From a virus: 64,000 nt of DNA. Position numbers and translations under genes: made by a program. The notes under the pieces were generated by a model, which searched no databases, had not been told where the DNA came from, and saw only the letters and a list, made by a program, of their open reading frames with translations. The number at the start of each line of letters is the position of its first letter. Position 1 is the stretch's first letter. Where the stretch lies: positions 1-64,000 of IMG/VR virus record IMGVR_UViG_3300018420_002445. One strand, written 5' to 3'. Of this stretch, positions 1-39,800 are shown piece after piece.

Positions 1-3000
1 GCACCTTTGATTGATTCTTGGAAGAAAGGCTGATCTGGATCTGCTTCGTTCAACCATGCTTCTAATCGTTTCTTACTAATCTCTGTATCATCAACTAATA
101 ACTTAATAACTTCTCTAAATGCTGTACGCCATGTAGAGAATTCATCTGTGTTATATTGTGCGATACCTGATAGTAAAGGCACACTTGCATGTTCATCATC
201 TAACGTAAAGTCTAAGCCATAACCATAGTTCTTAAGTGTTAAGTCTTTGTTATACGCAATCATAGCCTGATGTCCATAGACTAATCCATTGACTGGATTC
301 TTTGCTTCAAAGATATAATGCTTAGGTTGTTGCATTCTATCTGGTTGCCAGTTAAAGTCAAACTTGGGCGATACTTTTAGTTTAGCAAATACAGTAAACG
401 CCCAAGGTGTTTCACTTGCTTCTGCTGATGCGTGATATGCTTGTACACGACCATCAACACCATCTACTCTTACTACTCTGTTTGGTACATTTTTTGTAAT
501 TTTTTGCAGATGTTCCCAATTTTCCTCTGCTCCTTTCTCTCCGTTTGATAAGAAAACAATATCCATAGGCTTCGATAACGCAAGTCTATTGGCATTTTTA
601 ATATATGGGTATTCGTATAGTTCTCTCTTTACATGATCTTTTACTTCACGTGGAACTATAATTCTAGTTGCTCCTGTAGATTGTACTATGATGTTTTTAG
701 ACTCTGCTGTCCATAATGACATAGGTTCTTCATCAACTACTTGTATATCTTCATCTGTTTTAGACACTAGAGTTACATAAGGAAACTCGTCTATATCTTT
801 TAACGTCTTTGTATGTGTATCACTCTCAGAAACGATTACAGGCGCTCTCAGACGTTGTGTACGCAACGTTTGATTGTAGTTTATCTTCTCATAGTCTTCT
901 AATGATTCCATGTTGTCGATCAAATCACGTGTTTTATTAACGTCAATAAAGAATGTATCTCCAAACTTTTGTTTACTGCTTGGAAACACATGCAATTGGT
1001 CACGTGCAAATGGATCGCATATATAAGAGAAGTCAAAGTCACTGTAATCACAGATTGAGGATGCTATCCATATGTGATGTTCTTTACGTTTAGGTTGATC
1101 TTTAACAATCTTTTTCAACGTAGTAAGATAATCTGTGTCATGTTCGATAGTACTTACACGTTGTCTTGGTGCTTTGTCTTGTAGTTGCTTAACAACTGCT
1201 TCTGTTTGTTTATTCCCATGATCGACAACTACAATATCGTATACACATTCAGTGGCTACTGCTCTGTTTTCTTTTACAAAGTTTAAGTTGTCTAAGTGTT
1301 CGATGACATTAATGTATTTGGTGTCTTCATTAAATGTTTCTCTGTTAACCAGGTATGTTGTACCCCAATGCGACCATTGTGTACCGAACACATGTACCAT
1401 TTTCATTTGCCATGGGTTAGGATAATAATTAAAATCAAATTCTTCGTAATCTAATTCTGAATTTAAGATCCAAAGTAAACTTGTTGTTGATCTGTTTATA
1501 CATCTGCGAGTAGTTTCTACCCATGAGTTTAAGTATCTTGTTTTTTGTATGTTGGGATATCTCTCCTGTAATTTTGCAAATCGTTCTTTTGCTTCTTTGT
1601 TACCTCTATCAACATAGAACATATCTAAGTTGGCTTGTATTTCTCCTATAGAATCAGTCTCAACATAGTTAATTGTTGCATCTTTAAAGATTGCTGAGTT
1701 CACAAAATATGTTTGCGTGTTGATATTATCTTTAGAACCGAACGCATGAATATAATTAGATTGATACACATCAGGTCTCCAACTAAAGTCAAAGTCTGTG
1801 TAAACTAAATCCATATTCAATGCCCAGAATACTTCGTTTGGATGCTGTGCTACTAAATCTTCTAAAGTTGTTTCAATAAAGTAAACATCGATTTCGTCAG
1901 GTATTACATTGTCTGATTCAACGTTTTGTAAATATAATACTTTGCCATCATTGCCGGGTTGTACATACTTAGGACCGTCATCTTTACCTGCTGTACTACC
2001 GAACTGATAGATTGCAGGATCTGCTGTATCATCTGGGTGCCACGAAAAGTCAAACTTGCTAACGTCTAAGTCACCGGGCACTACCCAATGCAGACGTTTA
2101 CTGTTTGCTAACTTACGTGCTTTAATAATTCTTGTATCAACATACTTGATGTCTTTTGCACCGGGCACTGTATATGTTGGTCCACCTGTCTTTTGATGCT
2201 GTGTACCAAATTGATAAATGAACGGATCATCTTCTGCGTATGGATGCCAACTAAAGTCAAAGTCTTCGATATCTGTCGGGACTTTCCAGTTTGTTCTGTC
2301 ACCTGTATCTAATGAGTACGCAACTGGTTGCTCAATATACTTGACTTTAGTAGCACCTTGAACTGTATACTTTGGACCACCTGTTAGTGCCCACTGAGTA
2401 CCGAACTGATAAATGAAGGGCTCGTCTAAGATATCTGGATGCCATGAGAAATCAAATCCTTCAACATCAATGCCTTCTGGTATTTCCCAGTTCTTTTTGT
2501 TTGGTAATTTGTGAGCAATATTTCCTTCTACATATTTTACTTCAGTTGCACCCTCAACAATAAACTGCGGTCCACCTGTCTTTTGCCACTGCGTACCAAA
2601 CTGATAAATGTATGGTTGATCTTCAAGCGGAGATGGTCTCCAACCAAAGTCAAAATCTTTTGTATCTACATCATCAGGTATAATCCAATCTTCATCGTTT
2701 TCTTCTAATTGTGCAACTACATCGTGTACATACTTAACAGACTCTGCACCTATAACTCTATATTCGATAGTAGGCATTTCTTCTGCTGAATAAAACTTGT
2801 TACCAAACTGATAAATGAATGGCTCGTCTGTTTCATCGTGGTGCCAACTGTAGTCAAAGTCTTTAATTTTATAGTTACCTAACGTTCCCCAATGTCTATT
2901 GTTGGGGTCAGGTAATCTTTTTGATTTTATAATACGTGTGTCAATATACTTGACAGCACTCCCTTCATGTGCGCCGGGTGTGATGTATTTGTGTCCACCT

Positions 3001-5459
3001 GTCTTTTGCCATTGAGTGCCAAACTGATAGATAAACGGCTCATCTTCTGCATAAGGATGCCATGAATAGTCGAAATCATCTTCATCAATTAATTTAGGAT
3101 CAAACTCCCAATTGTCTTTACACGGCAATGCTTTTGATACTTGATCTTCTACGTATTTTACTTCTTCTGCACCCTCAACCGTATAAACAGGTCCGCCACT
3201 TAGTGCCCATTGAGTAGGAAATCTATAAATGTAAGGTGGACTTGTTGCATCTGGATGCCAACTGTAATCAAATTTATCACTATCGATATTTTCAGGCACA
3301 GTCCAGTTGTCTATTTTAGGTAATGCTTTTGCTTTAAACTGTGTTTCATATTTTACTTCAGTTGCTCCTTCTACATGATATCTTGGACCACCAGTCTTTT
3401 GCCATTGCGTACCAAACTCATGTATCATTGCTGGTTCGTTAGGATTAGGTTTCCAACTAAAATCAAACTCACTTACGTCTATGTCTTCTGGTATCTCCCA
3501 GTTTGTTTTATCATGTCCTAATGTTGCTATCAAGTCATTAACATAACTAACTTCGTCTGCTCCAATGACTCTATACTCTAACGTAGGCATTTGTTCAGCA
3601 GGATAATATTGATTACCAAACTGATAGATAAATGGCTCTGATGTTTCATCGGGATGCCAACTAAAATCAAACCCTTTAATACAATAGTTATTCAATACTC
3701 TGAAACTATTTGGATCTGCTAGTCTAGTTGCTTTTAAAATTCTTGTATCGATATATTTGATAGCACTGCCTTCATGTACACCTGGAGTAATATATTTTGG
3801 TCCACCTGTTTTTTGCCATTGAGTACCAAATTGATAAATGTACGGCTCATCTTCTGCGTAAGGGTGCCAAGAAAAATCAAATGAATCTTCTTCGATTAAC
3901 TTAGGATCAAATTCCCAATTATCTTTGCATGGCAATGCTTTTGCTACTTGTGAATCTACATATTTAATTTCTTCTGCATCATCACAACGATATACAGGAC
4001 CACCTGACATAGCCCATTGAGTTGGAAAATGATAGATGTATGGTACAGGTTCTGTTGAGTCTGGATGCCATGAGAAATCAAATTCACTTGTATCTATATT
4101 GTCAGGTATTTCCCACTTATCTTCGGTGGGTGTTGCAATTGCGTAAAAAATATTTTGATATTTTGTTTCTGTTGCACCCTCTACAGTATAGATAGGTCCA
4201 CCTGTCTTCTGATGTTGAGTACCGAACTCATGTATCATAGCCGGCTCGTTAGGATTAGGTTCCCAACTAAAATCAAATGTATATTTTTGAATGTTGTCAG
4301 GTATTGTCCAGTTATCAGCACACGGCATACGTACAGTTGTTTCTGGCATAAACTGATATTCAGTTGCTCCTTCTACTTTAAACTCTATACTAACTTTATC
4401 TTCTGCTTTATTCCATTGATTTCCCCACGCATAGATATAAGGTGGACTAGTAGGATTAGGTCTCCAACTAAAATCAAATTCATTCATGTCGATTTTTTCG
4501 TTAAACTCAAATAACTCTGGCTTTGACTTTAGTTTAGGTGTATATTCGGTAACATACTTGACTGCTTCTGCGCCTTCGACTTTGTATATAAGTGTAGGCA
4601 TAATTGTACCATCGTATAATTGATTACCAAACACATAATTAAATAGTTCTGTTTCGTTTGGATCAGGTCTCCATGTAAAGTCAAATGAATCTTCTTCAAT
4701 TTCTTCTAACACTTCCCACACAGACATATCTACTGCTAAGTCTACTGGTTTATCAATGTACTTAATTGTACCGTCATTACCAGGTACATGATATTCTAAG
4801 ATTGGTACTTGTTCTGCGGGTGCCCACTTGCTTCCCCATACATAGATAAATGGCTCTGTGTCTAATGGGTCTGGACGCCATGTAAAGTCTACTTTACTTT
4901 CATCGATAGGTTCATTAATTTTCCACCTAGACATCTGTGGTTCAAGTTCGACAATAGTATCCATATACTTGACATGTCCTACATTATCAGGCGTATGATA
5001 TTCTACAACACTTCTTTGTTCTGCTGTTGCAAATTTACTTCCCCATACATAAATGTAGGGAGGATCTGTAGGGTCTGGATGCCATGAAAAGTCAAATTTA
5101 CTCTCATCAATTGTGTCAAACAGTTTCCAGCATTGATTTTTAATAGACTTGCGTTTGATGGGTGCAACATCTGCACGATAAACTCTGATATCACTTTGTT
5201 CTTTAGCACATAACCAAGTGCCTGAATCTTTTTGATGTTGACTAGGCCATATGTTGTTGTGTTCTTCTGCCCAAACGTCTTCATCTGGTAAAAAATCAAA
5301 ATCAAATTCCCAATCAAATCCTGTGTAATCACAAAACTCATTGATTATCCAAAAGTGATCTGTCGTGGCTTCTTTGCGAGCCTCATCTATATCGAAAACT
5401 TGTCGTTCTCTAGGGTGAACGTTTGGTTTTTCACCAAAGTAAAATACGTCTCTAAGCAT
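1..5459 (-). CDS. Giant repeat protein of degenerate GT-A-like modules (partial, 3' end outside window)
   Basis: An ATG at 5459 opens a minus-strand frame that runs to base 1 without a stop, giving at least 1,819 residues. Frame was checked at 2609, 1388, 911 and 308. The N-terminus (MLRDVFYFGEKPNVHPRE) is followed by about 16 tandem modules averaging 68 residues (residues ~100-1180). Their core is a Trp, then FDFSW-x-P-D/N, then IYxFGTQW-x-K, then a VxGAxExKYV strand. From ~residue 1180 to the edge the modules become longer and begin with strands such as YDIVVVDHGN and MDIVFLSNGE, like the glycosyltransferase at 30481-31425; a TWRTAFREVIKLL segment near the edge matches AWRAGFREGVKMVL there. 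The DGD motif of that enzyme is replaced by NSEL, NMDL, SSIC or AKL. I infer a non-catalytic binding or scaffold protein; function unknown. I have seen this style of protein in cyanophage genomes. It starts 9 bases after the carbamoyltransferase stop and has no clear ribosome binding site, so translation may be coupled. Confidence 0.85.
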   Translation of the reverse strand, partial: MLRDVFYFGEKPNVHPRERQVFDIDEARKEATTDHFWIINEFCDYTGFDWEFDFDFLPDEDVWAEEHNNIWPSQHQKDSGTWLCAKEQSDIRVYRADVAPIKRKSIKNQCWKLFDTIDESKFDFSWHPDPTDPPYIYVWGSKFATAEQRSVVEYHTPDNVGHVKYMDTIVELEPQMSRWKINEPIDESKVDFTWRPDPLDTEPFIYVWGSKWAPAEQVPILEYHVPGNDGTIKYIDKPVDLAVDMSVWEVLEEIEEDSFDFTWRPDPNETELFNYVFGNQLYDGTIMPTLIYKVEGAEAVKYVTEYTPKLKSKPELFEFNEKIDMNEFDFSWRPNPTSPPYIYAWGNQWNKAEDKVSIEFKVEGATEYQFMPETTVRMPCADNWTIPDNIQKYTFDFSWEPNPNEPAMIHEFGTQHQKTGGPIYTVEGATETKYQNIFYAIATPTEDKWEIPDNIDTSEFDFSWHPDSTEPVPYIYHFPTQWAMSGGPVYRCDDAEEIKYVDSQVAKALPCKDNWEFDPKLIEEDSFDFSWHPYAEDEPYIYQFGTQWQKTGGPKYITPGVHEGSAIKYIDTRILKATRLADPNSFRVLNNYCIKGFDFSWHPDETSEPFIYQFGNQYYPAEQMPTLEYRVIGADEVSYVNDLIATLGHDKTNWEIPEDIDVSEFDFSWKPNPNEPAMIHEFGTQWQKTGGPRYHVEGATEVKYETQFKAKALPKIDNWTVPENIDSDKFDYSWHPDATSPPYIYRFPTQWALSGGPVYTVEGAEEVKYVEDQVSKALPCKDNWEFDPKLIDEDDFDYSWHPYAEDEPFIYQFGTQWQKTGGHKYITPGAHEGSAVKYIDTRIIKSKRLPDPNNRHWGTLGNYKIKDFDYSWHHDETDEPFIYQFGNKFYSAEEMPTIEYRVIGAESVKYVHDVVAQLEENDEDWIIPDDVDTKDFDFGWRPSPLEDQPYIYQFGTQWQKTGGPQFIVEGATEVKYVEGNIAHKLPNKKNWEIPEGIDVEGFDFSWHPDILDEPFIYQFGTQWALTGGPKYTVQGATKVKYIEQPVAYSLDTGDRTNWKVPTDIEDFDFSWHPYAEDDPFIYQFGTQHQKTGGPTYTVPGAKDIKYVDTRIIKARKLANSKRLHWVVPGDLDVSKFDFSWHPDDTADPAIYQFGSTAGKDDGPKYVQPGNDGKVLYLQNVESDNVIPDEIDVYFIETTLEDLVAQHPNEVFWALNMDLVYTDFDFSWRPDVYQSNYIHAFGSKDNINTQTYFVNSAIFKDATINYVETDSIGEIQANLDMFYVDRGNKEAKERFAKLQERYPNIQKTRYLNSWVETTRRCINRSTTSLLWILNSELDYEEFDFNYYPNPWQMKMVHVFGTQWSHWGTTYLVNRETFNEDTKYINVIEHLDNLNFVKENRAVATECVYDIVVVDHGNKQTEAVVKQLQDKAPRQRVSTIEHDTDYLTTLKKIVKDQPKRKEHHIWIASSICDYSDFDFSYICDPFARDQLHVFPSSKQKFGDTFFIDVNKTRDLIDNMESLEDYEKINYNQTLRTQRLRAPVIVSESDTHTKTLKDIDEFPYVTLVSKTDEDIQVVDEEPMSLWTAESKNIIVQSTGATRIIVPREVKDHVKRELYEYPYIKNANRLALSKPMDIVFLSNGEKGAEENWEHLQKITKNVPNRVVRVDGVDGRVQAYHASAEASETPWAFTVFAKLKVSPKFDFNWQPDRMQQPKHYIFEAKNPVNGLVYGHQAMIAYNKDLTLKNYGYGLDFTLDDEHASVPLLSGIAQYNTDEFSTWRTAFREVIKLLVDDTEISKKRLEAWLNEADPDQPFFQESIKG
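2030..5130 (-). repeat. In-frame ~204-nt tandem repeats (about 16 units)
   Basis: On the plus strand the complement of the FDFSW core (for example aaagtcaaa or aaaatcaaa) recurs near 5088, 4875, 4678, 4468, 4267, 4072, 3868, 3661, 3460, 3256, 3068, 2854, 2646, 2449, 2252 and 2047, a period of about 204 bases or 68 codons. Units differ in sequence but keep frame and core residues. More diverged, longer units continue at about 1790, 1430, 1030 and 360. Confidence 0.85.
2699..4326 (-). repeat. Higher-order duplication of a four-unit block (2 x ~0.81 kb)
   Basis: Units 5-8 (about 3515-4326) and units 9-12 (about 2699-3514) match unit for unit. Both blocks have, in order, a PNPNEPAMIHEFGTQ unit, an FPTQWA-SGGPVY unit, a unit with HEGSA-KYIDTRI, and an FIYQFGN unit with AEQMP or AEEMP. 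DNA similarity is high: the stretch around 4240-4277 closely matches 3430-3465. This indicates a recent in-frame segmental duplication on top of the older unit expansion. Confidence 0.8.
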
Positions 5460-5468
5460 ATTATATAC

Positions 5469-7004
5469 TTATGAAATTACGCGGGTCTTGTAAAGTTTTT
5501 CAAATCGATCTGCGTCGGATCTATCATTAACCATGGGCTCACCTCGTACATTTAATGATGTGTTTAACAAGATAGGACATCCTGTTTCTTTGTACCATGC
5601 TTCTAACAATCTACGAATACCTGTACCGTCATTTGGAACTGTTTGTACTCTACTTGTGCCGTCTTTATGTACAATAGCAGGGAACTTTTTAGGATACTTA
5701 CAAGGTGCTGTAACTTGCATATAAGGTGAGTTGTTCCAATGCGTCGGCATTTCAAAATATTCATCTACAAGTTCTTCTAGTATCATAGGAGCGAACGGTC
5801 TAAACTGTTGTCTCTTTTTAATCTTGTTTACTTCTGATTTTATCTTTGATCCTCTTGGGTCTGCTAGTAATGATCTAGTTCCCAATGCTCTAGGACCGAA
5901 CTCAGCACGTCCAGAGGCTATCCCCACAATCTTATCTTCTTTTAGTGCTTTAACAGTTTCAACAACAGGATAAACACCTACAATATCTGTACCTAAAAAT
6001 GCGTTTTTCCAATTTAATTTTTTGCCGTAGCCCAATGCCGCGGCTCCTAATGAATTACCTGCATCACCTGGATTAGGCATAATCCAAATGTTCTCAAAGT
6101 ATTGACCTAAAAATCTATTAGCAGAACAGTTAAGTGCGACTCCTCCGCCATAGACTAAGTTGTCACTCTTGTTTAATTGTCTTGCTTTGCTCATTACTAT
6201 CTTAATAAGTTTTTCTACGTATACTTGTGCTGATGCGGCTATGTCGAACTCATCTGCACCTTCTAAGAATGAATCGTCAATACCAATGTGTGTATTTTCT
6301 TTAAACAACAATGAATCTGTGTGGGCGCCGAACTTATCTTCTATGTCTTTAACATATTTAGGCTCACCATATGCGGCCACACCCATTAAAATGTATTCTT
6401 CATCTAGTGGGCGTAAACCTAATCTTGCTGTCATTGCACTATAGTATAATCCAATAGAGTTAGGATACTTAAGTGTCCACAACTTTTTATATTTTGCTTT
6501 GCCTTTTTTATTGTAATAACCTTTCCAAATAGTAGCACAATCATTTTCACCGATCGCATCTATAATAACTATAGTTGCTTCATCAAAAGATGATGTTTGA
6601 AAACTGGCTGCCGCATGACATTTGTGATGAGGGTGCGTTTGAACAAAGTGAGGTATATGTCCGTCATGCATAAAATGACCCCATTGTTTTGTAACTCTTT
6701 CATATAGAGTATTGTATATGTCAGTACCAAAAATGTCTGAAAAATTAAATGGTCCTAACTTTTGACCTGCTCTAAACTGGCGCCAGGCTTTTACCCAAGG
6801 TCGTTCATAATAGTTTACAAATAACCGGTCGCCGTTATCTACCCATTCTAATGCTTCATCGATAATTTCAGGACACAACTCTGAGTCATGTTTCTTTTTA
6901 CTATATCGTTCACTGTGACCTGCAAATAAAATGTCGCCGTTGTCGTCTACCAAAGATACGCCGGCATCATGGAATCCGCAACTAATGCCTAAATATTTTT
7001 TCAT
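5469..7004 (-). CDS. NodU/CmcH-type carbamoyltransferase
   Basis: At 511 residues this matches the O-carbamoyltransferase family (NodU, CmcH, TobZ), which transfers a carbamoyl group from carbamoyl phosphate through carbamoyl-AMP onto a sugar or antibiotic hydroxyl. Visible family landmarks are the N-terminal LGISCGFHDAG strand with HSER shortly after, the HHKCHAAASF metal/catalytic histidine loop, GGVALNCSANR, RAEFGPRALGTRS, and the C-terminal LLNTSLNVRGEPMV. Length is somewhat below the usual 550-600, with a short tail after the last motif. ATG at 7004 overlaps the stop of the 49-residue gene upstream by the ATGA arrangement, so the two are probably translationally coupled. The acceptor is unknown; glycosyltransferases nearby suggest a sugar. 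Confidence 0.93.
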   Translation of the reverse strand: MKKYLGISCGFHDAGVSLVDDNGDILFAGHSERYSKKKHDSELCPEIIDEALEWVDNGDRLFVNYYERPWVKAWRQFRAGQKLGPFNFSDIFGTDIYNTLYERVTKQWGHFMHDGHIPHFVQTHPHHKCHAAASFQTSSFDEATIVIIDAIGENDCATIWKGYYNKKGKAKYKKLWTLKYPNSIGLYYSAMTARLGLRPLDEEYILMGVAAYGEPKYVKDIEDKFGAHTDSLLFKENTHIGIDDSFLEGADEFDIAASAQVYVEKLIKIVMSKARQLNKSDNLVYGGGVALNCSANRFLGQYFENIWIMPNPGDAGNSLGAAALGYGKKLNWKNAFLGTDIVGVYPVVETVKALKEDKIVGIASGRAEFGPRALGTRSLLADPRGSKIKSEVNKIKKRQQFRPFAPMILEELVDEYFEMPTHWNNSPYMQVTAPCKYPKKFPAIVHKDGTSRVQTVPNDGTGIRRLLEAWYKETGCPILLNTSLNVRGEPMVNDRSDADRFEKLYKTRVIS

Positions 7005-7150
7005 TTGTAAATAAACGGATCTCTTTTTTTAAGTTCTGCTAAACGTTTCTTGTATTCTTTTTCACGTTTATATTTGATGTAGGGCGTCTTTAAGAAATCA
7101 GCAATCTTACGTAAGACATTTTTAATTTTATCAATTATCTTTTTAAACAT
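7001..7150 (-). CDS. Small basic protein coupled to the carbamoyltransferase
   Basis: A 49-residue frame, starting MFKKIIDKIKNVLRKIADF and ending KKRDPFIYK, lies between the SGNH-like gene and the carbamoyltransferase. It overlaps the end of the former by 16 bases and shares ATGA with the start of the latter. The protein is Lys-rich with an amphipathic helical N-terminus. It resembles the small DUF5989-like proteins that I recall next to carbamoyltransferases in phages and bacteria; that assignment is from memory. A partner or membrane-tethering role is only inference. Confidence 0.75.
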   Translation of the reverse strand: MFKKIIDKIKNVLRKIADFLKTPYIKYKREKEYKKRLAELKKRDPFIYK

Positions 7151-23628: not shown

Positions 23629-24607
23629 TTTTAACGGTCTCTCCTGTCCATTGTTTAGGTATGATAATATCTGTACCACACATGCACATTTCTTTGTAGC
23701 ATGTAATTTCTTTAGGACCTATATTTTTAATGTCTTCTAATATATGTCCTACATCTCCGCCCATACCACAACTTGCTAAACTCATTGTACCTACAGGATT
23801 AATAAAAATACAATCGCCTACATTGCATTTCCAACCACTAAAGAAGTTCTGACTATTTACTATGATATCATTTGCATTACATACTTGCTCTGTGCCATCG
23901 TCATAACGATTGTATGATACAGTCATCTCTGTTCTTTTGTTTGGCTTAGGAACACTTTGATGTGTTTCTATGTTATGTTCTTCAATAAACTTTACTTTCT
24001 CTGGATCACTGTACTTCCATGGACCAGTTACATGTGATAGTTCATCGTAGAGAGGTGTCCATTCTAAAAAGTAATTAGGCATTACTTCTTTTAATTCGTT
24101 ACCGAACTCAACACACTCCCAAAATCTTTCTTCGTGTAATAATATTTTTGTACTTAAGTAGTTAACGTTCTCACATAACCATAGTGAGTTTTCTTTGTAT
24201 CTGTCTTTGTTTACTTGTTCTATGTGTAGACTAGCAACAATGTCATCAAATAGATATGCATGTTTTTGCCACCATTTCAAAGGTCTTGACAAATTTGTAT
24301 TAACTGCTAAAGTAGCATGTGGTAGATTTTCATATAACCATTCACAGATAGGAATAAAGTTACGCCATGCTGTTGGCTCTCCACCAGAGAAAAAGAATTT
24401 AAAGTTTTTGTACCCTGCTTTCTTATAACGTTTAACTATTTCATCTAGGTTGTTGATGTAAACGTCTAAGTTTCCGTTGTTAGGATTATCGCCCGCCCAG
24501 TTACCAGGATTACAATAACTACAACTGAAGTTGCAAAAGTTATTGACCTGCCATGTTATTGCTAAGTATGGCTCAGGTGCAAATACTTCTCTTAACTCTC
24601 TGCCCAC
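23594..24607 (-). CDS. Radical SAM enzyme (short form with Cys-rich C-terminus)
   Basis: This 337-residue protein has CNFSCSYC (Cys 25, 29, 32) near the N-terminus, FFFSGGEPT for SAM binding, and C-terminal cysteines (WKCNVGDC, ASCGMGG, CYKEMCMC) that could hold an auxiliary cluster as in SPASM/twitch proteins. The start is GTG 24607 with GGAAG upstream; an ATG does not occur before the motif. It overlaps the previous radical SAM gene by 16 bases. Substrate unknown. Confidence 0.88.
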   Translation of the reverse strand: MGRELREVFAPEPYLAITWQVNNFCNFSCSYCNPGNWAGDNPNNGNLDVYINNLDEIVKRYKKAGYKNFKFFFSGGEPTAWRNFIPICEWLYENLPHATLAVNTNLSRPLKWWQKHAYLFDDIVASLHIEQVNKDRYKENSLWLCENVNYLSTKILLHEERFWECVEFGNELKEVMPNYFLEWTPLYDELSHVTGPWKYSDPEKVKFIEEHNIETHQSVPKPNKRTEMTVSYNRYDDGTEQVCNANDIIVNSQNFFSGWKCNVGDCIFINPVGTMSLASCGMGGDVGHILEDIKNIGPKEITCYKEMCMCGTDIIIPKQWTGETVKSERKIPISHIA

Positions 24608-25872
24608 TCGTATACTTCCTTGATTTCTGGTACGATGTCTTCAAACTTTTCATCTCTATATTCATCTAGTTCGTCATTGAACTTTTTGAACTCTAGTATT
24701 CCACCTTTGTTTTCATCACCTACTGTTAAGTTATAGATGATCATTTTAAAGCCATTGTAAATGTCTACATTGTCTTTATGTTTCTCCTGATATACACGAT
24801 ACAGTTCTGCTAGTCTGCGTTTAACACTTTGTGGTAAGATCATTACGTTAGCATACCACGGGTTAGTCGCAAGATTGAATCTTGGCGAAGAGTATTCAAC
24901 ATCAATAAAGCCATTGTCAACCATGTAATCCCAGAAGTCAGGAAAATCAAAGATGTTCCAAATGGATATCGTGGGAGTTATTTGAAATTGAGCATGTGGA
25001 ACCTGCTCTTTGACCTCTCTGATATTCCTGACAATTTTTTCCCAATCGGTACCTGAACGAATGCACTCTGCGACTTCGCCATGTGCATCTAAACTCGCCC
25101 AAATCTTCAATTGCGGAAACTTTTTCCAATACGCAATCAAGTCAACATTTTTCTTATAATTAAGTGTTGAAAAGTTTGTCGTATAGGTTAATTCTACTTG
25201 ATCTGTTAGATCGTTTTCAATCCAATAATCTAAACACTCGTAATGCTCTGGAGTAATAACAATTTCTCCACCTGCAAAATAAACTTCTGTAACGTCATCT
25301 AAGTAAGGCTTAAGTTTTGACATCAACGTCATTTCATCATTGTTACTGATAACAATTTTACCTTTGTTCTTAGGGAAGTACTCATCGAATACTTCTTGTC
25401 CACGTTCATTTAAAAACTCTTGTGACCATAGTGATGAGCATGAAGGACCGCATGATCTACATTTCATATTACATATATTACTAAAACGAATATCCATATA
25501 CTTCATCTGAAACTCTTTCAGTGAGCCGTCATCGTTAGTAACATCTGCTATGTAATCAACATAGTCAAGTCCTTTACGTTTGTTATGTGACTGTCGCATA
25601 GTCCACTCGCCCATTAACTCTAAGTCATAACAACGTTTACATTCTGCTACAGGTTCATCACGCATCATCTTAGAACGTAAATCATTATACTTGTCAGAAT
25701 TCATCATCTGTATAATTGATTCATCATCTCTAAGTTCTGCTGTAGGCAACTCACTGTCTGCGACACAGCAAGGCATCACACGTTTGTCTGGCCATGCATG
25801 AAAATGTACCCAGGGTAAAACACAGAAATGCTTACCGTTTTCGACTAGATTCTTTACTACGATCTTTTCCAT
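24592..25872 (-). CDS. Radical SAM enzyme with N-terminal Cys-rich (twitch-like) region
   Basis: This 426-residue protein opens with HFCVLPWVHFHAWP, then PCC (35-36) and CKRC (78-81), and then the radical SAM motif CNMKCRSC (Cys 134, 138, 141) followed by YFAGGEI. It belongs to a set of paralogues with 26545-27795, 27792-29114 and, more distantly, 29081-30481. The N-terminal FCxxPW...CC...CxxC pattern suggests an auxiliary Fe-S cluster placed before the SAM barrel. The substrate is unknown; auxiliary-cluster members usually act on peptides or small metabolites. One base separates it from the DUF481-like gene upstream. Confidence 0.88.
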   Translation of the reverse strand: MEKIVVKNLVENGKHFCVLPWVHFHAWPDKRVMPCCVADSELPTAELRDDESIIQMMNSDKYNDLRSKMMRDEPVAECKRCYDLELMGEWTMRQSHNKRKGLDYVDYIADVTNDDGSLKEFQMKYMDIRFSNICNMKCRSCGPSCSSLWSQEFLNERGQEVFDEYFPKNKGKIVISNNDEMTLMSKLKPYLDDVTEVYFAGGEIVITPEHYECLDYWIENDLTDQVELTYTTNFSTLNYKKNVDLIAYWKKFPQLKIWASLDAHGEVAECIRSGTDWEKIVRNIREVKEQVPHAQFQITPTISIWNIFDFPDFWDYMVDNGFIDVEYSSPRFNLATNPWYANVMILPQSVKRRLAELYRVYQEKHKDNVDIYNGFKMIIYNLTVGDENKGGILEFKKFNDELDEYRDEKFEDIVPEIKEVYEWAES

Positions 25873-25873
25873 A

Positions 25874-26548
25874 TTAAAACTTTACTCCCAAAGTTATATT
25901 AAAAATACTTCTTTCTATTGGATCTTTTGTATAAACATTTTTAAGACCCACTGTTACTTTATCTGTTACACTATAATCAAATGATGTTTCGTTTCTTATG
26001 TAATCATCTTGTCCTGATTCCCATAACAACTTATTTACAAATGTAACTTTTTTGTTTAAGTTGTATGCATACCAAAGTGATGAACGTATAATAGGTTCAC
26101 TAATCTCATTTGAATTAAGGTATGCAATTGAATTTTCTATCGATGCTTTGTGATTTTCTGTTCTGAAAATTTTATATCCATGACCCATACCTATTACGAT
26201 TCTATCATTGTTATCTCTAAATTCATCGTAATCATAACTGGTAGATCCTATTACATAATGCTTTTCAGTTATAGTTCTAATTGCTTTACCACTAGTTCTA
26301 AACTTATTAATTGTTTGCTCACTGTCTTCTGATTTGTAGGCATAGTCTGCATCAAATACTCCCTGCCATATATCTGATTCCCATTTATGATCAAACGATC
26401 CTGTGAATACAATTGACTCATCGATGTTAACAAACGTTCCACCGACTTTTGCTTTTGTTTCTGCTGATGCAGTAGGCGCTAATATAATCATTGCGGCAAC
26501 TGCAAGTAATATAGTCATATCTCCTATAAATTTTAATTTCTTTTTCAT
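25874..26548 (-). CDS. Outer-membrane beta-barrel protein, DUF481-like, with signal peptide
   Basis: This 224-residue protein has a basic start, a hydrophobic stretch and an AxA site (PTASA, residue 29 then ETKAK), a standard Sec signal peptide. The mature part alternates short beta strands rich in aromatic and charged residues (HKWESDIWQGVFDADYAYKS, then RIVIGMGHGYKIF) and ends in FNITLGVKF with the terminal Phe of the outer-membrane insertion signal. The pattern is that of DUF481/YdiY-type barrels. It is tightly placed between two radical SAM genes (overlap 4 bases upstream, gap 1 downstream). A phage-encoded porin-like protein would change the host envelope; origin from a host is likely. 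Confidence 0.8.
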   Translation of the reverse strand: MKKKLKFIGDMTILLAVAAMIILAPTASAETKAKVGGTFVNIDESIVFTGSFDHKWESDIWQGVFDADYAYKSEDSEQTINKFRTSGKAIRTITEKHYVIGSTSYDYDEFRDNNDRIVIGMGHGYKIFRTENHKASIENSIAYLNSNEISEPIIRSSLWYAYNLNKKVTFVNKLLWESGQDDYIRNETSFDYSVTDKVTVGLKNVYTKDPIERSIFNITLGVKF

Positions 26549-27795
26549 TCTTCTAAATCTCGTAAACTATTGAGTTCTGGAAACACACTCCAGAAGTCCT
26601 CATCTCTTATTTTATCTATGGACGCAGTGTGTTGCATCATAATCTTTTTGTTATCTTGCCATGTATTATCTTCATTAGCAAAATTAACTGCATCTCTAAT
26701 TAAACGTGATAAACTTGTCTTGTCACCTTCAAACTTGTCAGCAAACTTTAAAGCATTCTCTGCCGCTGGTCCCTTCATTGCAGTAGGTAAACTCTTAGCA
26801 CTATAGTAACTAGGATGCACAGCAAGATATAAACTATGATACCAATCTTCTGCTCTTACAATATTCTTATCTTTAAGATATTGATAAAACTCACCGATCA
26901 TTGGGTAATTAAACATAGAGAATACTGTGTTCATTTGAAATGTTACGTAATCTAAATCTCTGAATGTAAGTAAGTTGTTTTCTACTACACCCCAGTCTGT
27001 TCCTTTACGTAACCATTCTGCTCTTTCGCCATAATGATCAACTGAACAACTTAACTCAATATTATCAAAGTGTTTCCAAAGTTCTAATATATCATGCTTC
27101 TTATATTTAATATTACTTGCGTTAGTATTATACCTTAAGACAGGTTTTTTACCACGTCTAATAAATTCTTCTAACATGACATAATGTTCGTCTGTAATAA
27201 GTGGCTCTCCACCTGCAAAATAACATAAGTCAATATTGTCAATGTGTTCTAGTGTTTCTTCTAGTACTGTTCCTGTTTGATCGTCTGCATGTATTAAGAT
27301 AGGATGTTTAGGATCGTGGTTGGCTCGCATCTCTGCTCCCCATTGCGAACTAAACTCACTGCCACATGTGCGACATTTGAAATTACATATATTAGAGAAC
27401 CTAATATCAAAGTAATGCATTCTAAAGTCATCTACTGTTCCGTCTGCTTTTGTCTGTGGTACTAATTCATCGAATCGTTTACCAAAATGTTCTTTAGAAT
27501 AGTTTCTAAAACTATGTGGACCTGCTTCTTCATGTTTGTAGCAGAAATCACATACACTATTCTTTTTATCGTTTAGCATATCTAAACGTAATTGTTTCAT
27601 TTTGTCATTGTTAAATGCTTCTTTCAATGATGTTTCTTTTGTGTTGCCAAATGGTTGTGTATAGTCATTAGAACAACAAGGATAGATATCTCCTTTAGGT
27701 GTCACGTTTAAATGCAACCAAGGAAACATACAGAATGTTTTACTTTCTTCTAATAAGTAAGTTTTGTCTACTATTGGTATACGTTCATTGCTCAT
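26545..27795 (-). CDS. Radical SAM enzyme with N-terminal Cys-rich region (paralogue 2)
   Basis: This 416-residue protein has FCMFPWLHLNVTP, PCC (40-41), CDFC (82-85), then CNFKCRTC (Cys 137, 141, 144) and CYFAGGEPLI. It is close to 27792-29114 throughout (shared FRMHYFDIRFSNICNFKCRTC versus FRMRYFDIRFSNICNFKCRTC, cut here to the motif). The downstream half keeps LRYNTNASNIKYKKHDI and RAEWLRKGTDW. Tandem duplication is the likely source. ATGA-type overlaps join it to both neighbours. Reaction unknown. Confidence 0.9.
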   Translation of the reverse strand: MSNERIPIVDKTYLLEESKTFCMFPWLHLNVTPKGDIYPCCSNDYTQPFGNTKETSLKEAFNNDKMKQLRLDMLNDKKNSVCDFCYKHEEAGPHSFRNYSKEHFGKRFDELVPQTKADGTVDDFRMHYFDIRFSNICNFKCRTCGSEFSSQWGAEMRANHDPKHPILIHADDQTGTVLEETLEHIDNIDLCYFAGGEPLITDEHYVMLEEFIRRGKKPVLRYNTNASNIKYKKHDILELWKHFDNIELSCSVDHYGERAEWLRKGTDWGVVENNLLTFRDLDYVTFQMNTVFSMFNYPMIGEFYQYLKDKNIVRAEDWYHSLYLAVHPSYYSAKSLPTAMKGPAAENALKFADKFEGDKTSLSRLIRDAVNFANEDNTWQDNKKIMMQHTASIDKIRDEDFWSVFPELNSLRDLEE

Positions 27796-29114
27796 GGTCG
27801 CAACGCCTTTGGTACTTTATACAATGCTGCCAACTCAGGGAAAGTAGTTAAAAAGTCTTCTCCCCTTAACGCATCTATTCTTTTTATTTCTTCTTTAAAC
27901 TCTACTTCTCTTTCGTTCCAAGTATCTTTAGACATTAACCATGGAATAACCTGTTGTATTTCATTTATCTGTTCTTGTCTAAAGTTTAAATCTTTCATGT
28001 AATGCATAGTTAAATGCAACTGTTCTAGTGCTTGTTCTTTATAGCCGTCAGGCAATACATGTGAAGATAAGTGTTCTGGTGATCCCATGCTATAGAGAGT
28101 CCACACAGAACTCTCAGGCGTATAAAAATGATTGTCTATCATATACTTGTAAAAGTGAGAAATAGTCAATGCATTGAATATACTGTACACAGTATTCACC
28201 TGAAAATTAACATTCTTTGCTTTCTTTAATTTTTTTAAATTTGTTTCAATTGTTTTCCATTTAGTTCCGTGTCTAATGTATTCTGCCTTTTCTCCCATAT
28301 GATCAATTGATGCATAAATTTGAACTGGCTGTTCAAAATGGTCCCATAGTTTAAAAATATCACGTTTCTTATATTTAAAATTAGATATGTTTGTATTATA
28401 CCTTAATTGAATATCTGTTTTCTTTTTCTTAATCATCTCATCAATTAACATATAATGTTCATCAGTGATTAATGGCTCTCCACCTGCAAAGTATGCAACT
28501 TCAAAATTGGGAACTTGTTTTAATACTTCTAATATAAATTCTTCTCTGTTGCCTTTTTCTAACTCTATAGCATACATAGGCAACCCTGTTTGCTCACGTG
28601 ATTCTAAATCTTCTTGTTCCCATTTAGAACTAAATGCACTGCCGCATGTACGACATTTAAAGTTGCAAATGTTACTAAAACGAATATCAAAATATCTCAT
28701 ACGAAAGTTTACAATTCTTCCTGTATTCATATCTGTTGTTTCAATTACATCGTTAAAGTAATCAGCCCATGCTTCGTTGCTTTGTGTTCTGAAACTTGGT
28801 ACACCCTGATCATCATGTTTATGGCAATTCGCACATTCAGGATTTTTGTTTCCTTTTAACATATCTAAACGCAACTTCTTCATTTTAGGAGAGTTAACTA
28901 AGTCTGCAAGACTGCTACGATTAGAGTTACCAACGCCCTGATTGTCTGCACATGATTTTGAGATGCAACAAGGAGCACCTTGTCCTGTGGGTGTAGTATG
29001 CATGTGTACCCATGGAATCATGCAGAAAGTTTCTGATCTATTAAGAAGCAAATCTTTTAGAAAGATTGCCTGCTTCTTATCTACAGCGGGTTTGTTAGGC
29101 TTACTTGCTGGCAT
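27792..29114 (-). CDS. Radical SAM enzyme with N-terminal Cys-rich region (paralogue 3)
   Basis: This 440-residue protein has FCMIPWVHMHTTP, PCC (49-50), CANC (94-97), then CNFKCRTC (Cys 150, 154, 157) and AYFAGGEPLIT. Its ends are LRYNTNISNFKYKKRD and KAEYIRHGTKWK, paralleling 26545-27795. The same FCxxPW...CC...CxxC layout suggests the same auxiliary cluster. It overlaps the fourth paralogue by 34 bases upstream and paralogue 2 by 4 downstream. Confidence 0.9.
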   Translation of the reverse strand: MPASKPNKPAVDKKQAIFLKDLLLNRSETFCMIPWVHMHTTPTGQGAPCCISKSCADNQGVGNSNRSSLADLVNSPKMKKLRLDMLKGNKNPECANCHKHDDQGVPSFRTQSNEAWADYFNDVIETTDMNTGRIVNFRMRYFDIRFSNICNFKCRTCGSAFSSKWEQEDLESREQTGLPMYAIELEKGNREEFILEVLKQVPNFEVAYFAGGEPLITDEHYMLIDEMIKKKKTDIQLRYNTNISNFKYKKRDIFKLWDHFEQPVQIYASIDHMGEKAEYIRHGTKWKTIETNLKKLKKAKNVNFQVNTVYSIFNALTISHFYKYMIDNHFYTPESSVWTLYSMGSPEHLSSHVLPDGYKEQALEQLHLTMHYMKDLNFRQEQINEIQQVIPWLMSKDTWNEREVEFKEEIKRIDALRGEDFLTTFPELAALYKVPKALRP

Positions 29115-30481
29115 AATTTATAAAAATCCATATACTCTGGATACACTGTTAATATATCTGTTTCTCTACGATCATCTAGTTCGTTAAAGAAGTTGTAAAA
29201 ATCTCTTCTACCTTCAATTAATTTGTCTTCGTCATAATGTGTATTTTCCATATAATCAACGACACGTTTGAACTTTTCATATTCTATTGTAGTAAACTTA
29301 TCACTACGTTCATTATCTACGTTGTCTTCGATAAACTTAAGTGACTCGTACATGTAAGGCATGAATTCTTCTTTAGGTAAAATATTCATATCATACTGTA
29401 AAGGTTCTTTCAAGTATGGAGTATCAAATCTAACTCTGTGTTTATCTTCTGACTTCCAATCGTACCATCCATAGATCGCACGCCATTCTAAAAACTTTTC
29501 TAATAGACTTTTAAAGTCTGTTACTGCTAACAAATTAAAAGTACACATAAATGTAACAGGAGAGTCTGTCTCTGTTAGATACGTATGTAAGTTCTGTTGA
29601 AAGAGTTCCAAGTCTAGTCCAGTTCTAATATATTCTGCTCGTTCTCCCCAGCAGTCTAAACTAGTAAACAATTTAAAACTTTCTAGTTTTTCTTCGTCAC
29701 ACAATTTCTTTACAGAACTACTTAGTTTTTTTACTAATGCATTTTTTGTACCTAAGTTACTGTTTACATTAAGTTCTAACCAAGGCATAGGTTCTTCATC
29801 GATTTGTTTTAGCAGTCTCCATGTTGATGTATGCATTGTTGGTTCTCCACCTGTTACACGTAAGATATTTAAGTCTTTACGCATAGATGGCCACCACTCC
29901 CAAAACGCATCAACATATGGATTTTCTTCTTCACGTTCAAACAGTTTCATCCAATCAACATCATTTCTATGGTTCTTTACAGTTTCAACTGGACCGAATT
30001 GTTTAATCTCACTGTGATAACTTGATGAATACTTTGGATGACAATAACCACATTTAAAGTTACACTCATTACCAAAGTTAATTTCTAAATATTCTGGATT
30101 AATATTTTGATCCCAAGGGCCATTAAGTGCTTGATCGAATCTTTCTTCTGTGAAAATAGAACCGTTACGAATATGTCTGTCTGAAATATAATCAGGACCC
30201 ATGTCTTCAACATTCCAGCAATATTGACAACCTTCTGGTCTCTCACCTGCTAACATTTGTTTGCGTTCCATTTTCTTTTCCCAAGTATTATGTAATGCAC
30301 TTGGGTTATCTTTTAATTCATGTAATGGAATTTTGTGTGGGCGAGGATGATAACAACTATGCGTTTCACCTGTTTGTAAGTACATAGTAACATGTTGCCA
30401 TTTAGCCAAACAGAATGAAGGCGTTGCTTCATTTTCAACTCTTATCTGAATTGTTTTTATTCTATCTGTTTCTTTGGACAT
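29081..30481 (-). CDS. Radical SAM enzyme with N-terminal Cys region (paralogue 4, divergent)
   Basis: This 466-residue protein has FCLAKWQHVTMYLQTG (24-39), HSCYHP, EGCQYCWN (85-88), then the motif CNFKCGYCHPKYSS (Cys 140, 144, 147) and ILRVTGGEPTMH. The second Cys site is reduced to one Cys plus His (SCYHP) instead of PCC, unlike the other paralogues. The C-terminal half has FTSLDCWGERAEYIRTGLD, in common with the group. It starts one base into the stop of the GT-A gene (shared A at 30481). Confidence 0.88.
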   Translation of the reverse strand: MSKETDRIKTIQIRVENEATPSFCLAKWQHVTMYLQTGETHSCYHPRPHKIPLHELKDNPSALHNTWEKKMERKQMLAGERPEGCQYCWNVEDMGPDYISDRHIRNGSIFTEERFDQALNGPWDQNINPEYLEINFGNECNFKCGYCHPKYSSSYHSEIKQFGPVETVKNHRNDVDWMKLFEREEENPYVDAFWEWWPSMRKDLNILRVTGGEPTMHTSTWRLLKQIDEEPMPWLELNVNSNLGTKNALVKKLSSSVKKLCDEEKLESFKLFTSLDCWGERAEYIRTGLDLELFQQNLHTYLTETDSPVTFMCTFNLLAVTDFKSLLEKFLEWRAIYGWYDWKSEDKHRVRFDTPYLKEPLQYDMNILPKEEFMPYMYESLKFIEDNVDNERSDKFTTIEYEKFKRVVDYMENTHYDEDKLIEGRRDFYNFFNELDDRRETDILTVYPEYMDFYKLCQQVSLTNPL

Positions 30482-31425
30482 TACCAGCCCTCTATTTCTC
30501 TGATAATCTCCATCTCTGTCACTAGGGGACCTAGGTTTCTTTTATCTGCGTTATAATGCCTTTTGAAAAACTTTGATTGTTCAGCATCAAGCATGTTCAT
30601 GGGTAAGCCCAACTTGGCTTTTAGTTCTACCCCAATTTCTTTTGCGGCTTCGATTGGGTCATTGTTCATATGCTGTTCCCACATATTCGGATAGTTATCA
30701 AACCATTGAATGTCTGTGTGTTCAAAATCTGTTAACATTGTCATATATGTTCCCAATCTTGCGCCGTATATTGCCCAGTCACCGTTCTCTGCATCTAAGC
30801 CTACATTCTGCCATATAGTTAGATTGTTTAAATTTTTATCTGCTACTCTACCTTTAAACTCATCTACAGTTACTAATGCTCCGCGGTCTAATACCATCTT
30901 TACGCCTTCTCTAAAACCAGCACGCCATGCTTGGAATGCTGATTTGTTAGGGTAAGTAGTTGAGTAGCAATCATACATTGCCCAGTACAATGAGTCTGCT
31001 GAGTTCATCATAAAATCAACTTGAGTTGCTTCAGAACCGTCAGTATGTTCATGCGTAGTCATATTCTCTACATAAGTTTTAGTCCATGAACTCATTCCAC
31101 CGTTGCCATAACGCAAACCATTAATATTGTTGATTGACTTCCATCTAAACTGTGCTTGTTGATATCTTGGGTCTTTATCTGTGAAATCTAGTTGAATGTT
31201 AAAGAAATCTTCTTCTGGTAAAGTGTCACCATCGATAAGAATAAATCTTTCCGTTTCACTTAACTCACCTGCGGCTTTGTGAGCCGCATCACTTCCTAAT
31301 ACGCCGTCAACTCTTTGAGCCCACGGAACCATGTTTTTAACTTGTACCCAAAATTCTTCTTTTTGTGGTTCATCGTAACTTAAATAAATTACATCTAAGT
31401 CTGCAATATCAACAATATTACTCAT
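30481..31425 (-). CDS. GT-A-type glycosyltransferase-like protein with DGD motif
   Basis: From the ATG at 31425 the product is 314 residues. DVIYLSYDEPQKEEFW (strand 1), RVDGVLGSDAAHKAA, FILIDGDTLPEEDFF with DGD at 65-67 as the metal/nucleotide-sugar DxD, RYGNGGMSSWT, and SAFQAWRAGFREGVKMVL are all features of a GT-A-like family widespread in T4-like marine phages. It is the intact relative of the modules in the giant protein at 1-5459. A GTG at 31440 is an alternative start. The stop of the 51-residue gene lies inside the first codons (ATGAGTAA). Sugar and acceptor unknown. Confidence 0.85.
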   Translation of the reverse strand: MSNIVDIADLDVIYLSYDEPQKEEFWVQVKNMVPWAQRVDGVLGSDAAHKAAGELSETERFILIDGDTLPEEDFFNIQLDFTDKDPRYQQAQFRWKSINNINGLRYGNGGMSSWTKTYVENMTTHEHTDGSEATQVDFMMNSADSLYWAMYDCYSTTYPNKSAFQAWRAGFREGVKMVLDRGALVTVDEFKGRVADKNLNNLTIWQNVGLDAENGDWAIYGARLGTYMTMLTDFEHTDIQWFDNYPNMWEQHMNNDPIEAAKEIGVELKAKLGLPMNMLDAEQSKFFKRHYNADKRNLGPLVTEMEIIREIEGW

Positions 31426-31573
31426 CAAATTTCTTTTCACCTCTGGAATAACTATCTTCAGGATTTATTTCGGCATCAGCATTTATAAATCGCATACGTT
31501 GAATTAAATCCCAATTGACATCTTTCCAATTTTCGTTAACACTTGTGTATTCTTCGTTATTAGATTTCTTCAC
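31418..31573 (-). CDS. Small GTG-started acidic protein (51 residues)
   Basis: The frame from GTG 31573 (MKKSNNEEYTSVNENWKDVN, ending RGEKKFDE) fills the gap between two genes. GGGAG sits seven bases before the GTG, inside the end of the 118-residue gene, and the stop overlaps the glycosyltransferase start, an arrangement typical of genuine coupled phage genes. The protein is acidic, without a recognisable domain. Confidence 0.65.
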   Translation of the reverse strand: MKKSNNEEYTSVNENWKDVNWDLIQRMRFINADAEINPEDSYSRGEKKFDE

Positions 31574-36897: not shown

Positions 36898-39800
36898 TTA
36901 CGTTATATCCGTATGTAGAAATTGTGCAGGAACAGTTTCTGATATTGATAATGGATCTCCTTCTACTGTATTAAAGTTATAAGAGTTCCAACTTTGATCA
37001 ATATATAAGTCAGGTAAGCGGTTATTGCTTAATAAACTGAACACTTCTGTATATTTTGCAATGTATTCTTGGACTGCTGTGCCGTTTGCGCCGCGTTGTA
37101 ATCCAGTTACTGAATTATTATTAAAGTCTACACTACTAAATTTAATTTGCTCTCCATTAATATACAACACATTACCTTCTAATGATGTAATTGTCAATGA
37201 ATCTCCTGCAGAAATATATGTACCATCTGTGATTTTTAAGATAGGTGCAAGTTCTTCAATAACAACTTCATATGTATCAGTGTCTAATGTGTTTCCAGTA
37301 GTATTATTTAGAACAGTTACACCACTCAAAATGTTTTTGTCTGAGTTTAGTCCAATTGAATAGATATTGTTGATCGGAGTAGGTGCAGTTCTTTCTTCTA
37401 CTAAATTATCAGTCACTCTAGTTACATCACCTAAGTAAATTACTTGTGATAGAGGGAAGATAGGTTGTGCTAACCAAGTTCTACTTTGAGTATTTGCTCT
37501 ATAAATTGACTGAGTACTCTCTGCATTCACTGCATTTAAATAAATTTCTTCGTCAGGTGTTGAGTGCGGTATCATATTGGTTATAACAACAACATCACCT
37601 GGTGCAATGTCGGTTAAAAGACTTACTTCATTGTCTTCATCTAGTCTTAGTCTACTTGTTGGTAAACGGTAACCATTAACTGTAACCCAAAGTCTTTCAA
37701 CATTTGTTTGTTCCCATTGTGTTACATTCATAACACCTGTATCATTAGTCAAAGACACTTCAACAGTTGCATTTCTAGTCAAGCCAACAGTAAATTCAGT
37801 ATTGCTTAATATTTGCTTGATATAATAAGTCGTACCCTGTATTAATCCACCTAATACTGAAGAACCTGCTACTTGTCCTTGTTGTGAGAATATAACTTCA
37901 TTATTAACAACAAGTTGACTTGTATCTTGGCATGTGATTCTATTTGTAGTTGCTGTTGCAGTTGCTTGTGTAGTAACTAAGAAGAATGTTCCTTGTTTCC
38001 AAACATAACCACCTGATATATATGTTGATACACCAGTAACTGGGTAATTGACTGCATCTAATGCTGGATTGTATACTTGTGTATAAATTTCAAATCTATA
38101 TTGATCGAACACTCTTGCATAATATGAGTTACCGTTCAATTCAACAGCACCATATACACCATCAATTTTTACTAATTGATCAGTTGCTAATGAGTGAGGA
38201 ATACCCGTTGTAATTCTTGTTGTTGGGTTACCTCCTACTGTTGTAACCATTAACCCGGTTGCTGTAGATAATACAACTTGTGCACCTGTTTGATCTTTAA
38301 TAGTTGCAGTTGTAGCATCTATAACATTTTCTACAAAGTAAACTTGTCCTTGTTCTAGTCCACCAAAGTCATTTCCTTGGAAATAAATTTGTTGATCAAC
38401 AGCAAAACCTGTTGTAGAATCAAATGTAATTTCATTTGATGTCGCGGTTGTAGCAGTTGCCTGAACAACAGCAAGAGGATTTTCTTGTCCAGTTTCGATG
38501 TTTGTAATATTTGCGACTGTGATAGCATTTGAACTACCTACCATTGATCCTGTATCAGTTGTCACTGTAACTGGAGTACCGCCTACTTGTAATGAAATTG
38601 TAAACGTAGTTGCATCAATAATCTCTAAGATATAATATGTTACACCTGCTGTAATACCACCTATAGTTGGATTAGAGAATACAATTGGTTCGTCTTCCGC
38701 TAAGACCGATGTGTCAGCACATGTTAAGTAATCTAATAATTCATCATACAAGACAACTGTAGGTGTATCTTGGTCGTATGTCTCTACATCAGGAGTATCT
38801 TCGTCAAATGTACCTTCTAAATGAGTAGTTGCTGTAACTGTAATAGTCGTAAATGAACTGCCTGATGTACCTGAAATACCGTATTGTGTTGTTAGATATT
38901 GTCTTTCAGTATTATTATATGTTAAGACAGAAACTTTTGCTCCAAGTGCGGGAGGTGAATTAAACAGAACTGTGTTTGATCCGTCATCGATAGTATATGA
39001 CGTATTTGTTTGTCGCAGACCATCGATTTCAACAATTGCGTTGTGTGGATTGTCTCCTCCATTGTAATTGTTCATTGGGAAGGATGCTTGTGATCCATTA
39101 CCAACATATTCTTGTATTTCTGGTAGAGAGTATCCGTACTGTGATGGATCTCCTGAATCTCCAAATATTGTGTAAACAATGTAATCGTCAGCATTGTTAT
39201 AGCCACTTGGATTTGCTAGTACAAGTTCTGCTTGTATACCATTTGGCTGTATGCCTATTGCATAATCATTAGTTACATAAGATGAGATTCCTGCTGAATC
39301 AGTTAAAGTAACAGCAGGGCCACCGTCAGTTTCTGAAATTGTAAATTCATTGTTATCTATAATTGATTCAATATAATAAACAGTATTTGGTGTAATATCT
39401 GAACCAAACATATCTGCCGCAAATTGTATTCTGTTACCCACAGATAAACCTAATGTAGTGCCTGTCGTAATCGCATTATTAGATGCTTTAGTTTTACTTA
39501 CAGTATTTGTCAAACCTAATACTAATCTATTACCATTGTGATATACGAGAGGATCAGTCCATACTGTACCTGTTCCGGTTTGAACATTAACAAGCATAGA
39601 TCCAGTTGCATCAGTTAACGATTTAATCGGACCTGCTAATCCTGTACTTGAATCATAACTTTCTGATATTGTAATAGAATTTGTTGCTGTAGAAATAGAC
39701 TTAACATAATAAGTTGTGTCTTCTGCTACTCCGCCGAATACTACTCCTTGGAATGATATTGCTTCGTTTGCTGTAAATTTAGTTACACTTTCACATACAA

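What the first reader, a model, noticed from the sequence alone, without database searches (positions are those of the whole stretch)
1..5459. Overlooked open-ended giant gene built from glycosyltransferase-derived modules
The first 5.4 kb looks gene-poor if only complete frames are counted, but one minus-strand frame from ATG 5459 runs without a stop to the edge, at least 1,819 residues. The modules of ~68 residues align with the second half of the intact GT-A-like enzyme at 30481-31425 (Trp strand, metal-site turn, FDF/LDF strand, VH-FG-QW strand). The C-terminal modules also regain strand 1 (YDIVVVDHGN, MDIVFLSNGE) and end with TWRTAFREVIKLL, as in that enzyme. A polymer of ~20 half-GT domains is a most unusual protein form. 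Seen: frame, repeats, shared motifs. Inferred: descent from a GT.
Basis: partly seen in the sequence, partly recalled or inferred. Interest (0 to 1): 0.9.

Follow-up and report, generated by a model that had tools for sequence, protein, structure and literature searches.

The report
Phage protein of dead sugar-enzyme fragments
A group of very large aquatic phages carries a giant protein made mostly of one fragment of a sugar-transferring enzyme (a glycosyltransferase) repeated one to more than thirty times; the enzyme's metal-binding catalytic motif has been lost, so the phage seems to have turned an enzyme into a long non-catalytic building or binding rod.

Summary
The minus-strand frame from ATG 5459 is open to base 3 and stops only because the contig ends. 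Near-identical relatives give the full gene: 1,855 aa, just 36 residues more. It is a real gene: 77 related viral loci, dN/dS 0.03-0.14. The GT reading is supported and refined. The last domain (D4) is a whole GT-A domain that lost its DXD motif: it matches an intact GT family (profile probability 99.9%) and the window enzyme at 30481-31440 (98%), and every top PDB fold match of the C-terminal model is a GT-A glycosyltransferase. D2 and D3 keep the GT N-half; D1 and the N-domain a shortened form; 16 central ~68-aa modules only the middle segment (GT residues ~44-97 of 225). The link from modules to GT is a chain of profile matches, not superposition. Module number varies (1 to ~33; length = 593 + 68 x matches, r = 0.997). 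A second array type in other marine phages uses the same GT segment and ends in an intact GT. The phage lineage is related to RaK2/PA5oct jumbo phages. Best guess at function: a non-catalytic scaffold or glycan-holding rod working with the phage's own GTs and a carbamoyltransferase. Descent is well supported; function is inferred.

The parts
5145..5459 (-). N-terminal domain (res 1-105): shortened GT-like unit, strand 1 - helix - strand 3, motif FWIINEF in place of FW(V/I)VDGD
   Evidence: profile match to D1 93.4%, E 2.5e-7; secondary structure, but model confidence is below 50 for residues 41-101
1914..5144 (-). central array of 16 modules of ~68 aa (res 106-1182), W.I..ID...FDFSWHPDP..PPYIYxFGxQ....GG..Y.V.GA...KY
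   Evidence: hmmsearch; AF2 pLDDT >90 over most of the first five modules; profile match to D1 99.2%, D2 96.7%, D4 62.8%
1629..1889 (-). D1 (res 1191-1277): shortened GT-like unit, strand 1 - helix - strand 3, DXD site N-x-D/N and variants
1245..1628 (-). D2 (res 1278-1405): degenerate GT-A domain with the N-half (b-a-b-a-b), DXD replaced by NSE
   Evidence: match to the intact GT family 93.6%; fold; DXD
570..1241 (-). D3 (res 1407-1630): degenerate GT-A domain plus an extra ~100-aa part, DXD replaced by (A/C)S(S/T)
   Evidence: match to D2 98.1% and to the intact GT family 77.2%
3..566 (-). D4 (res 1632-1819 here, to 1855 in orthologs): GT-A domain over the whole length of the intact GT, VDGD replaced by VFAK, with the TWRTAFREVIKLL helix; cut by the contig end
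   Evidence: match to the intact GT family 99.9%, E 1e-35 and to the P2 family 98%, E 1e-13
5469..7004 (-). Nol/NodU-like carbamoyltransferase, 9 bp upstream; the same gene directly precedes the giant gene in most related loci
   Evidence: PHROG 1601, E 5.7e-93; synteny
30481..31440 (-).
   Evidence: no Pfam or PHROG GT match on its own

Best explanation
The gene encodes a giant, non-catalytic derivative of a phage-encoded GT-A glycosyltransferase. One whole but dead GT domain sits at the C-terminus; before it come progressively reduced copies; the bulk is an array of the middle GT segment (the strand that led to the metal site and the sheet after it), copied in steps of whole modules. Shown: homology chain, loss of DXD in the GT-like units, purifying selection, whole-module length variation, gene context. 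Inferred: the array is a long rod of glycan- or acceptor-holding units that serves as a scaffold for the co-encoded active enzymes (P2 GT, other GTs, carbamoyltransferase, radical-SAM sugar enzymes) while the phage builds or attaches a glycan, perhaps on its own tail or fibres. Estimated confidence about 0.92 for GT-A descent and loss of the catalytic motif, about 0.4 for the scaffold role; the figure below is for the whole statement.
For: GT-A fold: the top PDB matches are chondroitin polymerase, heparosan synthase, ArnC and WrtF (best E 6e-5, probability up to 1.0). Homology chain with decoys. DXD intact in 59/59 P2 and in 56 of the 57 intact-family sequences where the motif pattern found the site, absent in N and D1-D4 of the giant family. 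dN/dS 0.03-0.14. Length follows module count, r = 0.997; near relatives differ by blocks of 201 nt or 948 nt. In other marine phages a related array (up to 1,182 aa) is fused to an intact GT, so an array working beside a GT is a natural arrangement. The giant gene follows a sugar carbamoyltransferase in most loci and lies in a radical-SAM/aminotransferase/epimerase cluster; in L230 an array-GT lies among tail and virion genes. 29 of 32 P2 contigs tested carry the giant gene; two more show modules at the contig end and one ends before the expected place.
Against: No binding, assembly or expression data exist. The modules have not been superposed on a GT; the model holding them has no PDB match. 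Direct module-to-intact-GT profile probability is only 19.9%. P2 lies ~25 kb from the giant gene, so linkage to it is loose.
Confidence: 0.42

Rival explanations
1. It is a virion part: a fibre or surface rod of lectin-like modules that binds host or environmental glycans, its length set by module number.
For: Whole-module length variation; regular ~68-aa modules modelled with high confidence; strongest self-similarity at four modules in 14 of 28 arrays; related array-GT genes lie among tail genes in L230.
Against: In this lineage the gene is in the sugar-enzyme cluster, far (over 30 kb) from the baseplate genes, and directly follows a carbamoyltransferase; related arrays carry an intact GT, unusual for a fibre.
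Confidence: 0.25
2. The array is a molecular ruler: it sets the chain length of a phage-directed glycan by holding the growing chain, with catalysis by separate GTs.
For: Module number varies while termini are conserved; arrays fused to a GT exist.
Against: No chain-length data; no proof that modules bind glycan; the analogy is recalled, not tested.
Confidence: 0.12
3. The repeats are a substrate: the neighbouring SPASM radical-SAM enzymes modify the repeated aromatic/Asp/Pro motifs.
For: Several SPASM/radical-SAM genes in the same cluster.
Against: SPASM-type genes (family 5) were seen near the giant gene in only 19 loci, and the modules descend from a folded enzyme.
Confidence: 0.06
4. A still active multi-domain glycosyltransferase that works without DXD.
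For: Some GT-A enzymes act without a canonical DXD (general knowledge); N-x-D/E remnants in D1 and D2.
Against: The five larger GT-like units lost the motif in different ways, whereas the intact relatives keep it.
Confidence: 0.1

Closest known systems
Intact marine-phage GT family with VDGD (here called GTM, e.g. L170 second domain, L236)
   Same: whole-length homology with D4: strand 1, KNPVNDLEYG-type segment, WRSAFRE helix
   Different: intact metal motif, often a single domain, no array in the smallest members
Array-GT proteins of other marine phages (L227-L231, 1,182 aa; L235, 1,060 aa)
   Same: repeats of the same GT segment (GT residues 42-106)
   Different: ~100-aa modules that keep strand 1 and one helix (by sequence), and an intact C-terminal GT
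A0A6J5LK21 and A0A6J5L5L5, 'Uncharacterized protein', uncultured Caudovirales phage
   Same: 39% and 36% identity, query TM 0.83 over 665 alignment columns of the C-terminal model: direct family members
   Different: shorter (804 and 1,076 aa in the library); no function recorded
Bifunctional GT-A polymerases (E. coli K4 chondroitin polymerase, P. multocida heparosan synthase)
   Same: GT-A fold, more than one GT-A domain in one chain (domain count from general knowledge)
   Different: two active domains, no repeats, 6-9% identity

Membership tests
GT-A fold glycosyltransferases | GT-A fold (alternating b-a-b N-half followed by the DXD strand and mixed sheet) | tested here: met
   D2-D4: AF2 model and Foldseek, top PDB matches all GT-A
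GT-A fold glycosyltransferases | DXD-type metal motif | tested here: not met
   absent in N, D1, D2, D3, D4
GT-A fold glycosyltransferases | glycosyl transfer activity | not testable with these tools
   needs biochemistry
GT-A fold glycosyltransferases | fold of the central modules | tested here: inconclusive
   strand order fits, profile chain, but the model with modules has no PDB match and no superposition was possible
Intact phage GT family (GTM) | whole-domain sequence homology | tested here: met
   D4 99.9%, E 1e-35
Intact phage GT family (GTM) | V-D-(G/A)-D motif | tested here: not met
   D4 has TVFAK there in 32 of the 37 sequences where the site was found, and other -(A/G)K variants in the remaining five
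Phage tail fibres | found in the virion | not testable with these tools
   no proteomics; gene context ambiguous

The most novel reading that the evidence does not exclude
A repeat-protein class born from an enzyme: a ~60-residue piece of a GT-A domain became a stand-alone unit that polymerises into rods of 1 to ~33 copies in jumbo phages, with the intermediate stages (active GT, dead GT, shortened GT, bare segment) still present in one protein and its relatives.
Probability: 0.6. Interest if true: 0.85.

Novelty: new variant of a known kind. Interest (0 to 1): 0.74.

Why it matters
It would be an unusually complete record of how a catalytic domain turns into a structural repeat, with the stages side by side in extant sequences. 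It also concerns a gene that seems to be core to an uncultured group of aquatic jumbo phages and points to glycan building as an investment of theirs. No Pfam or PHROG family and no PDB sequence covers it, and my searches of the paper library found no description of it.

Tried and rejected
tblastn of the giant protein, its C-terminus and the intact GT against INPHARED phages: no match; P2 gave only chance-level hits. Bacterial genomes: none by pattern scan. Profiles A1 and A3 against PA5oct, Atu_ph07 and RaK2: none (no positive control among them). My first module-versus-D4 comparison (94%) was circular, because the module set held the D4 stretch; it was redone without the C-terminal units (62.8%). 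The D1-versus-D2 value of that table (100%) is probably inflated by rows with misplaced boundaries and is not used. Foldseek of the N-terminal model gave no match. A late-promoter search (TATAAATA) was not informative for this operon. Moraphages, a published aquatic jumbo lineage, were read for a link; none was found (PMC12619734). I recalled a similar cyanophage family from memory; the phage collection did not confirm it, so it is not used.

Full report
Observation. The minus-strand frame from ATG 5459 to base 3 is open for 1,819 codons. The window starts at the first base of a 69,973-bp linear virus contig, so the missing end is a contig end, not a missing stop. A scan of viral contigs returned 77 loci. 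The close orthologs L010, L011 and L013 contain the whole gene, 1,855-1,856 aa. Substitutions are mostly at third positions, dN/dS 0.03 (L010/L011), 0.08 (L010/L013), 0.11 (L010/L014), 0.14 (L010/L029) and 0.13 (L034/L048).

Anatomy. From the N-terminus: an N-domain (1-105), 16 central modules (106-1182), and four larger units D1-D4. AF2 models from 45-row alignments have mean pLDDT 83.5 (N-terminal 480 aa; modules mostly above 90, N-domain residues 41-101 mostly below 50) and 84.6 (C-terminal 690 aa). Secondary structure shows a gradient: D2, D3 and D4 have b-a-b-a-b before the site of the metal motif; N and D1 have b-a-b; central modules begin at the strand before that site and keep about three further strands.

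Origin. Foldseek of the C-terminal model against the PDB gives 11 matches at E <= 0.001, all GT-A glycosyltransferases: K4 chondroitin polymerase, heparosan synthase 2 and ArnC. Because several domains are in the query, global TM scores are low, so the E-value, the probability and the uniform identity of the matches are what count. By profile, D4 matches the P2 family (98.1%, E 9.5e-14). A profile search of P2-bearing contigs with the C-terminal alignment led to a 550-aa protein in three contigs that has two intact GTs in tandem, one P2-like and one D4-like. The D4-like half belongs to a family found in 208 stretches of viral contigs; D4 matches that family at 99.9% (E 1e-35), D2 at 93.6%, D3 at 77.2%, D1 at 58.8%, central modules at 19.9% (E 0.0011, collinear, GT residues 44-97). 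Central modules match D1 at 99.2%, D2 at 96.7%, D4 at 62.8% and D3 at 56.2%. Forty-five decoys (15 other phage families, 30 column-shuffled profiles) gave at most 1.9% for modules; the highest decoy for any query was 20.7% (D2 against family 26, the thymidylate-synthase-like neighbours). I take descent of D2-D4 as established, and descent of N, D1 and the central modules as well supported by the chain but not shown by superposition.

Loss of catalysis. In P2 all 59 sequences have DGD; in the intact family 56 of the 57 where the pattern found the site have DGD or DAD (24 not found). At the same site the giant family has NEF/NEY/NEH (N; one DEF), N-x-D/N/E and variants (D1), NSE (D2), (A/C)S(S/T) (D3) and FAK-like (D4). 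Not every sequence was caught by the motif patterns.

Array dynamics. In 58 proteins with both ends, length = 593 + 67.8 x module matches, r = 0.997, with 4 to 33 matches. About three matches per protein belong to D1, D2 and D4, so the array is 1 module in L171 (855 aa) and about 30 in L027; L019, whose 3,084-aa frame was not in that set, has 36 matches, about 33 central. Close relatives differ by blocks: L065/L066 by 201 nt (one module), L050/L072 by 948 nt (12 versus 7 matches). Fourteen of 28 arrays show their strongest self-similarity at a spacing of four modules, several beyond all 500 shuffles, so duplication often works in four-module blocks or structure favours that period. Assembly errors in repeats could affect some counts.

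A second array. In L227-L231 (1,182 aa) and L235 (1,060 aa) repeated ~100-aa modules precede an intact GT. They match the intact GT at residues 42-106 (90.7%) and D1 at 80.2%. The same GT segment is thus used as a repeat in two arrangements; whether the arrays share an ancestor is not settled.

Setting. The contig has gp55/gp47/gp46-type genes next to baseplate genes in the order seen in PA5oct, Atu_ph07 and RaK2; gp47 is 49% identical to that of PA5oct-like phages. These isolates gave no match to the giant gene. A Nol-like carbamoyltransferase directly precedes the giant gene in most loci: family 3 is present in 57 places. Upstream lie DegT aminotransferase, B12/SPASM radical-SAM and epimerase genes. 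P2 lies ~25 kb away, between the radical-SAM genes and structural/baseplate genes. Of 32 P2 contigs searched, 29 have the giant gene, two show modules at the contig end and one ends too early; of 44 giant-gene contigs, 34 have P2, and the remaining ones that I checked by position are cut before the expected place. In L230 the array-GT gene lies among fibre-like, tail-sheath and head-tail adaptor genes.

Function. A dead, expanded GT array beside a sugar carbamoyltransferase and active GTs is most simply read as a non-catalytic scaffold or glycan-holding rod for glycan assembly, possibly on the virion. This is inference. A virion fibre, a chain-length ruler, a radical-SAM substrate and a DXD-less active enzyme remain open. 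A published account of jumbo cyanophage sugar clusters mentions GTs and carbamoyltransferases as outer-polysaccharide or metabolite systems (PMC7824862), but the passages I read do not mention such arrays.

Noticed in passing
window 7001-7150 (-): A 49-aa basic micro-ORF ending ...KREKEYKKRLAELKKRDPFIYK overlaps the start of the carbamoyltransferase gene (ATGA) and is conserved in many loci; a relative's version had no match in phage records.
   Followed up: partly
window 36898-56190 (-): A 6,430-aa open frame between the sugar cluster and the baseplate genes, probably a giant fibre or structural protein; only one sub-threshold Pfam match in its C-terminal part.
   Followed up: no
window 24592-30481 (-): A row of SPASM/radical-SAM genes (24592-25872, 26545-27795, 27792-29114, 29081-30481) with a DUF481 gene (25874-26548) among them.
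   Followed up: no
L170 (minus strand, 550-aa frame): Tandem of two intact DGD glycosyltransferases, one P2-like and one D4-like, a living intermediate between the single enzymes and multi-unit proteins.
   Followed up: yes
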